Below the pieces are notes generated by a model. It was not told the DNA's origin and searched no databases. It was given only the letters and a program-made list of their open reading frames with translations. The position numbers were made by a program, and so were the translations under genes. 64,000 nt of DNA from Spirochaetota bacterium (GTDB lineage Bacteria; Spirochaetota; Spirochaetia; Treponematales; UBA12059): NCBI GenBank assembly GCA_018816345.1, contig JAHIWG010000012.1, forward strand, positions 18,539 through 82,538, in the 5' to 3' direction. Below are positions 23,417 to 52,798 of the stretch, one piece after another (position 1 is the stretch's first letter; each line of letters opens with the position of its first letter).

Positions 23417-23445
23417 ATTCTAACGAGCGCGAGCGGGCGTGTCAA
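23417..23445 (-). promoter_or_regulatory. promoter of tRNA-Ala
   Basis: TTGACA, 17-base spacer, TAGAAT on the minus strand, 12 bases before the tRNA 5' end. Confidence 0.8.
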
Positions 23446-51868: not shown

Positions 51869-51897
51869 TTGACACGAGTAGAGATAATGGATATTAT
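51869..51897 (+). promoter_or_regulatory. consensus sigma-70 promoter without a following gene
   Basis: TTGACA, 17-base spacer, TATTAT, the closest match to consensus in the window. No plausible ORF begins downstream before the terminator at 51975. Confidence 0.75.
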
Positions 51898-51903
51898 GCG
51901 GAT

Positions 51904-52019
51904 AAATCAAGCGAACATGGTCGTCTTCTTGACAATGCACTCATATCGAGCACCCGGCGACTAGTAAGTACGATAGGGCTTCCGGGGTTTTACCTCCTTA
52001 TCCGGAAGCTCTTTTTTTT
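51904..52019 (+). ncRNA. candidate small RNA of about 115 bases
   Basis: Bounded by the consensus promoter at 51869-51897 and a rho-independent terminator: GGGCTTCCGG (51976-51985), loop GGTTTTACCTCCTTAT flanked by CCGGAAGCTC (52002-52011), then eight T (52012-52019). The loop exposes CCTCC, complementary to Shine-Dalgarno GGAGG, the usual seed type of repressing sRNAs. The track's 63-codon ORF across it has no ribosome site and unlikely composition. Confidence 0.6.
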
Positions 52020-52028
52020 ATTCCCGCC

Positions 52029-52057
52029 TTGTCCGTCTCGTCCCTCGACGATATAGT
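52029..52057 (+). promoter_or_regulatory. promoter of azlCD, predicted leaderless
   Basis: TTGTCC, 17-base spacer, TATAGT, then six bases to a GTG start at 52064. No Shine-Dalgarno site. Confidence 0.6.
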
Positions 52058-52063
52058 ATCTGC

Positions 52064-52798
52064 GTGAAAGAACACGACGACAAGAAAAATGCCGCCCGTA
52101 CCGTCTCCGCCGCGTTCAAGGTCGGAATACCCGTACTGCTAGGATACTCCAGCATCGGCTTCGCGTTCGGGCTCGTCCTCGTCGGATCGGGCCTACCGTG
52201 GTGGCTATCACCGGTCATGGCTATAGTCGTTTATGCCGGCGCCGCCCAGTTCATGGGGGCGGGCCTCCTGGCGGCGGGAGCCGGAGTCATGGAGATAGCG
52301 ATCCTCACCCTGCTCATGAACGCCCGCCACATGGTGTACGGCATCTCGGTGCTCGATAAGTACGCCGCGGCGAAACGCTCGAAGCCGTACCTGGTATTCA
52401 GCCTGACCGACGAGACTTACGGCCTGGTGACGACGATCGCGCCGCCGGCCGGAGTCGACCCCGTCGGCTTCTACTTCGCCCTCAGCGCGATGAACCAGCT
52501 CTGGTGGGTACTCGGCTGCGCCGCCGGGGCGATCTTCGGAAGGGCGCTGCCGTTCGATACTGCCGGGTTGGATTTCGCTATGACGTCGCTATTCGTCGTG
52601 CTCCTCGTGGAACAGACTAAGACCGTGCGGCGCGCCGAGCCGTACCTGGCGGCCGCGGTCGCCGCGGCGGTAGCGTACTTCGCCGTTCCCCCGGGCAACT
52701 TCATCCTAGCCGCCACCGCGCTGACGTGCGGACTGCTCCTCGTCGCGCGGGGGCGCCTGGAGCGCGGGGAGAACCGCGAGGGGAGCGCTAGGCGATGA
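52064..52798 (+). CDS. azlC: AzlC family branched-chain amino acid exporter, large subunit
   Basis: 244 residues, GTG start defined by the promoter. Six or seven helices. AzlC features: GIPVLLGYSSIGFAFGLVLV, YAGAAQFMGAGLLAAG, LLMNARHMVYGIS with the family motif NARH..YG, and FSLTDETYGL. With AzlD it exports branched-chain amino acids and their analogues. Its 3' end overlaps azlD as ATGA. Confidence 0.94.
   Translation: MKEHDDKKNAARTVSAAFKVGIPVLLGYSSIGFAFGLVLVGSGLPWWLSPVMAIVVYAGAAQFMGAGLLAAGAGVMEIAILTLLMNARHMVYGISVLDKYAAAKRSKPYLVFSLTDETYGLVTTIAPPAGVDPVGFYFALSAMNQLWWVLGCAAGAIFGRALPFDTAGLDFAMTSLFVVLLVEQTKTVRRAEPYLAAAVAAAVAYFAVPPGNFILAATALTCGLLLVARGRLERGENREGSARR

What the first reader, a model, noticed from the sequence alone, without database searches (positions are those of the whole stretch)
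51869..52019. Orphan consensus promoter and terminator: a candidate sRNA with a CCUCC loop
The best sigma-70 promoter in the window (TTGACA-17-TATTAT) is followed only by about 70 bases and then a terminator whose loop displays CCUCC. Such loops in known sRNAs pair with ribosome binding sites. In a genome where a class of genes is leaderless, an anti-Shine-Dalgarno sRNA would selectively spare the leaderless genes.
Basis: partly seen in the sequence, partly recalled or inferred. Interest (0 to 1): 0.6.

Follow-up and report, generated by a model that had tools for sequence, protein, structure and literature searches.

The report
Spirochaete sRNA with anti-Shine-Dalgarno terminator loop
This short stretch most likely encodes a real small regulatory RNA whose end hairpin displays the same letters as the ribosome's own mRNA-docking sequence, and hairpins of this kind turn out to be conserved across the spirochaete phylum, although no RNA has yet been detected experimentally.

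Summary
In detail: TTGACA-17-TATTAT (51869-51897), about 77 bases, then an 11-bp terminator hairpin (51975-52012) with 16-nt loop GGUUUUACCUCCUUAU and eight U's. It is an orphan unit, a predicted RNA of about 115 nt. It is not chance. Promoter, spacer and hairpin are kept in four other species of the genus, and the same promoter is coupled to the same kind of hairpin in other families of the order. Across the order the terminator stem covaries (10 of 11 pairs with double changes) while the loop CCUCCUU stays fixed. An all-bacteria motif scan returned mainly spirochaetes. Rfam and the paper library gave no matching family. The loop equals the 16S rRNA 3' end (ACCUCCUU). Best reading: a trans-acting anti-Shine-Dalgarno sRNA that blocks mRNA ribosome-binding sites. 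It works like rhizobial alpha-r14/NfeR1 and Listeria LhrC but is not a homologue. The own genome carries a second, different member directly upstream of a rex-like gene. Expression and targets are untested. The leaderless-sparing idea is compatible (leaderless-type starts are enriched; neighbouring azlC looks leaderless) but unproven.

The parts
51869..51897 (+). sigma-70-type promoter TTGACA-17-TATTAT; the spacer (TAGAGATAATGGA) is itself conserved
   Evidence: promoter pattern TTGACN5TRGAGN3TTNGATAT recovers the orthologous RNA in families f1, f2, f4, f5
51904..52019 (+). predicted sRNA (type A), about 115 nt; start inferred about 7 nt after the -10 box
   Evidence: inferred from promoter and terminator; fold z -3.44; conserved in G003, G005, G006, G007
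51906..51974 (+). 5' stem-loop of the sRNA, partly supported by covariation (4 pairs changed on both sides among 5 species; several pairs broken in G005)
51975..52012 (+). terminator hairpin: 11-bp stem 51975-51985 / 52002-52012 with 16-nt loop
   Evidence: stem covaries across the order
51993..51999 (+). CCUCCUU in the loop, identical to the 16S rRNA 3' end (anti-Shine-Dalgarno)
   Evidence: in all 43 aligned homologous hairpins; 16S 3' end GGCTGGATCACCTCCTTT in relatives
52012..52019 (+). U-tract of the intrinsic terminator
52052..52066 (+). context, not part of the sRNA: separate -10 box (TATAGT 52052-52057) six bases before the azlC GTG start (52064), so azlC has its own promoter and looks leaderless
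   Evidence: -10 and start region conserved in G003, G005, G007

Best explanation
The locus encodes a free-standing, trans-acting small RNA of about 115 nt. It is transcribed from a dedicated sigma-70 promoter and ended by an intrinsic terminator whose loop carries the 16S anti-Shine-Dalgarno sequence. Mechanism (inferred): the exposed loop UUUUACCUCCUU pairs with AAGGAGG-type ribosome-binding sites of mRNAs and blocks translation start, with the variable 5' stem-loop giving target choice or stability. It is one of several unlinked sRNA genes in these genomes that share the anti-SD terminator loop but have different promoters and 5' parts, so each could answer a different signal. Shown here: the anatomy, conservation, covariation, promoter-hairpin coupling and phylum distribution. 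Inferred: transcription, SD pairing, repression, targets.
For: Intergenic conservation in four other species of the genus (E 6.5e-21 to 4.5e-11). CM R1 hits 176 of 294 genomes of the order, and all 30 best hits carry CCTCC in the loop. On 43 aligned hairpins the stem pairs in 98.2% of cells with double changes in 10 of 11 pairs (0/500 shuffles; slid controls collapse) while CCTCCTT is fixed. A control model with scrambled loop reaches at most 42.6 bits against 71.7, hits 60 genomes, and most of its best hits are the same hairpins. The promoter pattern alone finds further genomes (G056, G080, G068, G041, G014, G019, G021, G051), each with the anti-SD hairpin downstream. An all-bacteria scan of 84,980 species genomes for the loop in a stem returned mostly Spirochaetota among the 80 listed loci; nearly all of those have a longer stem and T-tract, nearly all others do not. 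In the own genome only this hairpin and one upstream of a rex-like gene have the loop; four weaker hits are ordinary terminators. The loop equals the 16S 3' end. Several relatives carry two CCTCC elements per RNA.
Against: No transcript data. No conserved target was identified: in the window several AAGGAGG/GGAGG leaders pair well with the loop (-12 to -17 kcal/mol) but 1% of random sites reach -13.8. In this RNA two loop C's may pair with the extra G's in the minimum-energy fold, partly hiding the anti-SD. Loop invariance is partly built in, because the models carry the loop and the 43 loci aligned were chosen for CCTCC.
Confidence: 0.77

Rival explanations
1. The hairpin is a cis-acting leader or attenuator of the downstream gene (azlC, branched-chain amino acid exporter), perhaps with a 15-codon leader peptide (MVVFLTMHSYRAPGD).
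For: It lies 45 bases upstream of azlC in the same direction in four of five species; a short ORF exists in the window, G006 and G007.
Against: azlC has its own conserved -10 six bases before its start. G003 and G005 lack the ORF's ATG but keep azlC. In G006 the next gene is a cysK-like gene. In f4 genomes the RNA is divergent from dnaE and faces a convergent gene. No Phe_leader-type match above noise (15.8 bits against 55).
Confidence: 0.07
2. The CCUCC terminator loop is a binding site for a spirochaete RNA-binding protein or sRNA chaperone, not an SD-pairing seed.
For: One loop shared by unrelated sRNAs and by some terminators behind genes or tRNAs (L063/L070, L151) would also fit a common protein mark; terminator hairpins are typical chaperone sites (general knowledge).
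Against: The conserved letters are exactly the anti-SD, in f5 up to 11 nt identical to the 16S end (UCACCUCCUUU). Extra CCUCC motifs occur elsewhere in some of the RNAs in different structural settings.
Confidence: 0.12
3. An ordinary terminator of no special function with a C-rich loop by chance.
For: Intrinsic terminators exist in the genome (43 strong ones in 1.14 Mb of G007).
Against: Loops over 10 nt are rare, and the only CCTCC loop found in that 1.14 Mb is the rex-linked family member. Conservation with covarying stems and fixed loop over a phylum.
Confidence: 0.04

Closest known systems
alpha-r14 sRNAs / NfeR1 of rhizobia (PMC10746234)
   Same: Ultraconserved anti-SD motif in unpaired regions of hairpins whose stems vary; represses translation by pairing with the translation initiation region.
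   Different: Motif there is CCUCCUCCC in three hairpins; here ACCUCCUU matching the 16S 3' end, in the terminator loop; different phylum, no sequence homology seen.
Listeria LhrC multicopy sRNAs (PMC4132741)
   Same: CU-rich motifs including one in the terminator loop bind the SD region of an mRNA; several copies per genome.
   Different: UCCC motif; the copies are related to each other along their length, here the several RNAs share only the terminator loop.
Pneumococcal csRNAs (PMC4387999)
   Same: 87-151 nt, 5' stem-loop plus terminator, SD-complementary, multi-gene.
   Different: The SD-complementary part is a single-stranded linker; regulated by CiaR; described in streptococci.
RoxS/RsaE (PMC5419742)
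   Same: C-rich seed sRNA controlled by Rex; compare the rex-linked second type found here.
   Different: The window RNA is not rex-linked, has another structure, and there is no Rfam match.

Membership tests
Any known Rfam sRNA family | Covariance-model match at gathering score | tested here: not met
   No match in the window beyond tRNAs or in 18 homologous loci; best sub-threshold match 15.8 bits against 55
Functional class: anti-SD trans-acting sRNA | Free-standing transcription unit with own promoter and terminator | tested here: met
   By sequence only; not a leader in families with a convergent or divergent neighbour
Functional class: anti-SD trans-acting sRNA | Conserved SD-complementary sequence in a loop or single strand while the stem varies | tested here: met
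Functional class: anti-SD trans-acting sRNA | Demonstrated base-pairing with target ribosome-binding sites | not testable with these tools
   Only duplex energies computed, no conserved target
alpha-r14 / NfeR1 | Three hairpins each with CCUCCUCCC | tested here: not met
   The window RNA has one anti-SD loop, ACCUCCUU
Rex-controlled C-rich sRNA (RoxS-like) | Rex control of the promoter | not tested
   Only the second type (L073, L067, L069, L071) sits directly upstream of a rex-like gene; operator not tested; does not apply to the window RNA

The most novel reading that the evidence does not exclude
Spirochaetota possess an ancient, phylum-wide post-transcriptional system: several unlinked sRNAs per genome, each under its own promoter, share a standard terminator hairpin whose loop is a copy of the 16S rRNA tail. 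It acts as a common silencing module on SD-led mRNAs while leaderless or weak-SD mRNAs escape.
Probability: 0.4. Interest if true: 0.8.

Novelty: new member of a known kind. Interest (0 to 1): 0.6.

Why it matters
Few sRNAs are annotated in spirochaetes: a 2022 survey (PMC9029176) lists 6 distinct sRNAs for the phylum against 345 in Proteobacteria. A family recognisable by one loop across the phylum, including gut and termite treponemes, gives a direct handle on RNA regulation there. It also tests how a near-generic anti-SD seed achieves target choice in genomes that mix SD-led and leaderless genes.

Tried and rejected
Rfam at gathering and permissive thresholds: nothing. Cis-leader or attenuator of azlC: rejected by synteny changes, by azlC's own promoter and by loss of the short ORF's start in two species. 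Chance terminator: rejected by covariation, the scrambled-loop control and the terminator-loop survey. The first scrambled alignments (A6, A7) were badly gapped by MAFFT and not used. 16S 3' end in the own genome and its genus: not found, probably because these draft genomes lack that stretch, so f5 relatives were used. Target search in the window by duplex energy: not specific. Literature for Treponema plus small RNA plus anti-SD: no paper; the spirochaete sRNA papers found concern mainly Borrelia and Leptospira.

Full report
OBSERVATION. The promoter TTGACA-17-TATTAT lies at 51869-51897 and the terminator at 51975-52019. An 11-bp stem (51975-51985 / 52002-52012) closes a 16-nt loop, GGUUUUACCUCCUUAU, followed by eight U's. 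Hairpin: -19.3 kcal/mol, z -3.6; whole RNA: -35.1, z -3.4. The promoter scores 11 of 12, tied with one at 23445 (-) beside a tRNA gene. The promoter stretch is AT-rich (38% GC) in a 64% GC window. The unit sits between an ankyrin-repeat gene on the minus strand and azlC. azlC has a separate TATAGT ending six bases before its GTG, conserved in three species of the genus, so it need not be driven through the terminator and looks leaderless.

CONSERVATION IN THE GENUS. A search of 59 genomes with 281 bases found the element in G003, G005, G006 and G007 (69-75% identity; E down to 6.5e-21), covering promoter, 5' part and hairpin. A consensus 5' stem-loop has four pairs changed on both sides among five species, with some pairs broken, so it is only partly supported. 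The loop reads TTTTACCTCCTT, TTTACCTCCTT, TTTCACCTCCTT or TTTTCTCCTCCTT.

THE ORDER. A covariance model of the hairpin (R1) hit 176 of 294 genomes of the order at E <= 0.01. The weaker hits include ordinary terminators, but all 30 best hits carry CCTCC in the loop. On 43 hairpins, chosen for carrying CCTCC, the stem forms standard pairs in 98.2% of cells; 10 of 11 pairs show changes on both sides (0 of 500 shuffles reach this, sliding the partner destroys it), while CCTCCTT is fixed. A control model with the same stem and scrambled loop reached 42.6 bits at most, against 71.7, hit 60 genomes, and most of its best hits were the same CCTCC hairpins. Caveat: R1 itself rewards the loop, so loop invariance is partly ascertained. 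The control, the terminator-loop survey (43 strong terminators in 1.14 Mb of G007, only one CCTCC loop, a family member) and the promoter search below are the independent checks.

PROMOTER AND HAIRPIN ARE COUPLED. The pattern TTGACN5TRGAGN3TTNGATAT (no hairpin information) has at most one hit in most genomes. In G056, G080, G068, G041, G014, G019, G021 and G051, as well as in the genus, it lies upstream of an anti-SD hairpin, usually by 100-150 bases. A few hits (G090, G070, G097, G018, G003:C180, G029 repeats) are unrelated. Neighbours: divergent from dnaE in f4 and two f1 genera, beside an AMP-binding enzyme gene in f2 (and apparently f5), cysK in G006, azlC in the rest of the window's genus. 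So the unit is free-standing, not a leader.

MORE THAN ONE SUCH RNA PER GENOME. The own genome has a second hairpin at G000:C136:73882 (L073): its own promoter (TTGCAT...TATATT), a short 5' hairpin, loop TTTACCTCCTTTTT, directly upstream of a rex-like gene (Pfam Put_DNA-bind_N plus CoA_binding); the same arrangement occurs in G007, G016 and (by sequence resemblance of the gene) G023. Four further weak hits in G000 are plain terminators. Other types start with TGTAACCT. In f6 and G549 two anti-SD hairpins stand in tandem.

THE PHYLUM. R1 and R3 find the hairpin in many families of the class and a few deeper ones. Matching contig lengths and sequences (G006:C110 = JAIFMD010000187.1; Gracilinema and Breznakiella records) place the window's order with the treponemes. 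No hit was seen in the 1.1-Mb genome G032.

MECHANISM. ACCUCCUU is the 16S rRNA 3' end (GGCTGGATCACCTCCTTT in f5 relatives). A loop that copies the ribosome's SD-recognising tail, conserved while its stem drifts, is the signature of SD-targeting sRNAs: alpha-r14/NfeR1 (PMC10746234) and LhrC, whose terminator loop binds the SD region (PMC4132741); csRNAs are a looser parallel (PMC4387999). I infer that this RNA represses SD-led mRNAs. Selectivity is unresolved: the loop pairs well with several window leaders, but not far beyond background.

LEADERLESS IDEA. In 642 long ORFs of the genus, a start with a 6-nt SD occurs in 15% (control 1%) and a -10-like box just upstream in 9.5% (control 1.8%).

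VERDICT. A real, conserved sRNA gene by sequence evidence; a new family of a known functional kind, with a phylum-wide spread that appears unreported in the sources available. Expression and targets need experiments.

Noticed in passing
G000:C136:73882-73925 (L073 1501-1544; L313): Second anti-SD terminator sRNA of the same genome, with its own TTGCAT...TATATT promoter, directly upstream of a rex-like gene; same arrangement in L067, L069, L071.
   Followed up: partly
window 51875-51891 and one search hits: The promoter spacer (TRGAGNNNTTNGATAT) is conserved across families, mostly one hit per genome, suggesting a dedicated regulator site overlapping the promoter.
   Followed up: partly
L152, L155, L156 (family f6) and L157: Two anti-SD hairpins in tandem in one predicted RNA.
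   Followed up: no
L063 and L070 (G005, G003): Anti-SD terminator loop directly behind the same protein-coding ORF in two species, a possible 3' UTR-derived sRNA; L151 shows one behind tRNA genes.
   Followed up: no
L047, L055, L153, L159-L162: A Treponema-type RNA starting TGTAACCT (or TGTAACTT) with terminator AAGACTGCCG-TTTTCCTCCTTT-CGGCAGTCTT, another family member.
   Followed up: no
window 52052-52066: azlC looks leaderless: conserved TATAGT six bases before its GTG; such -10 boxes are enriched upstream of starts in the genus.
   Followed up: partly
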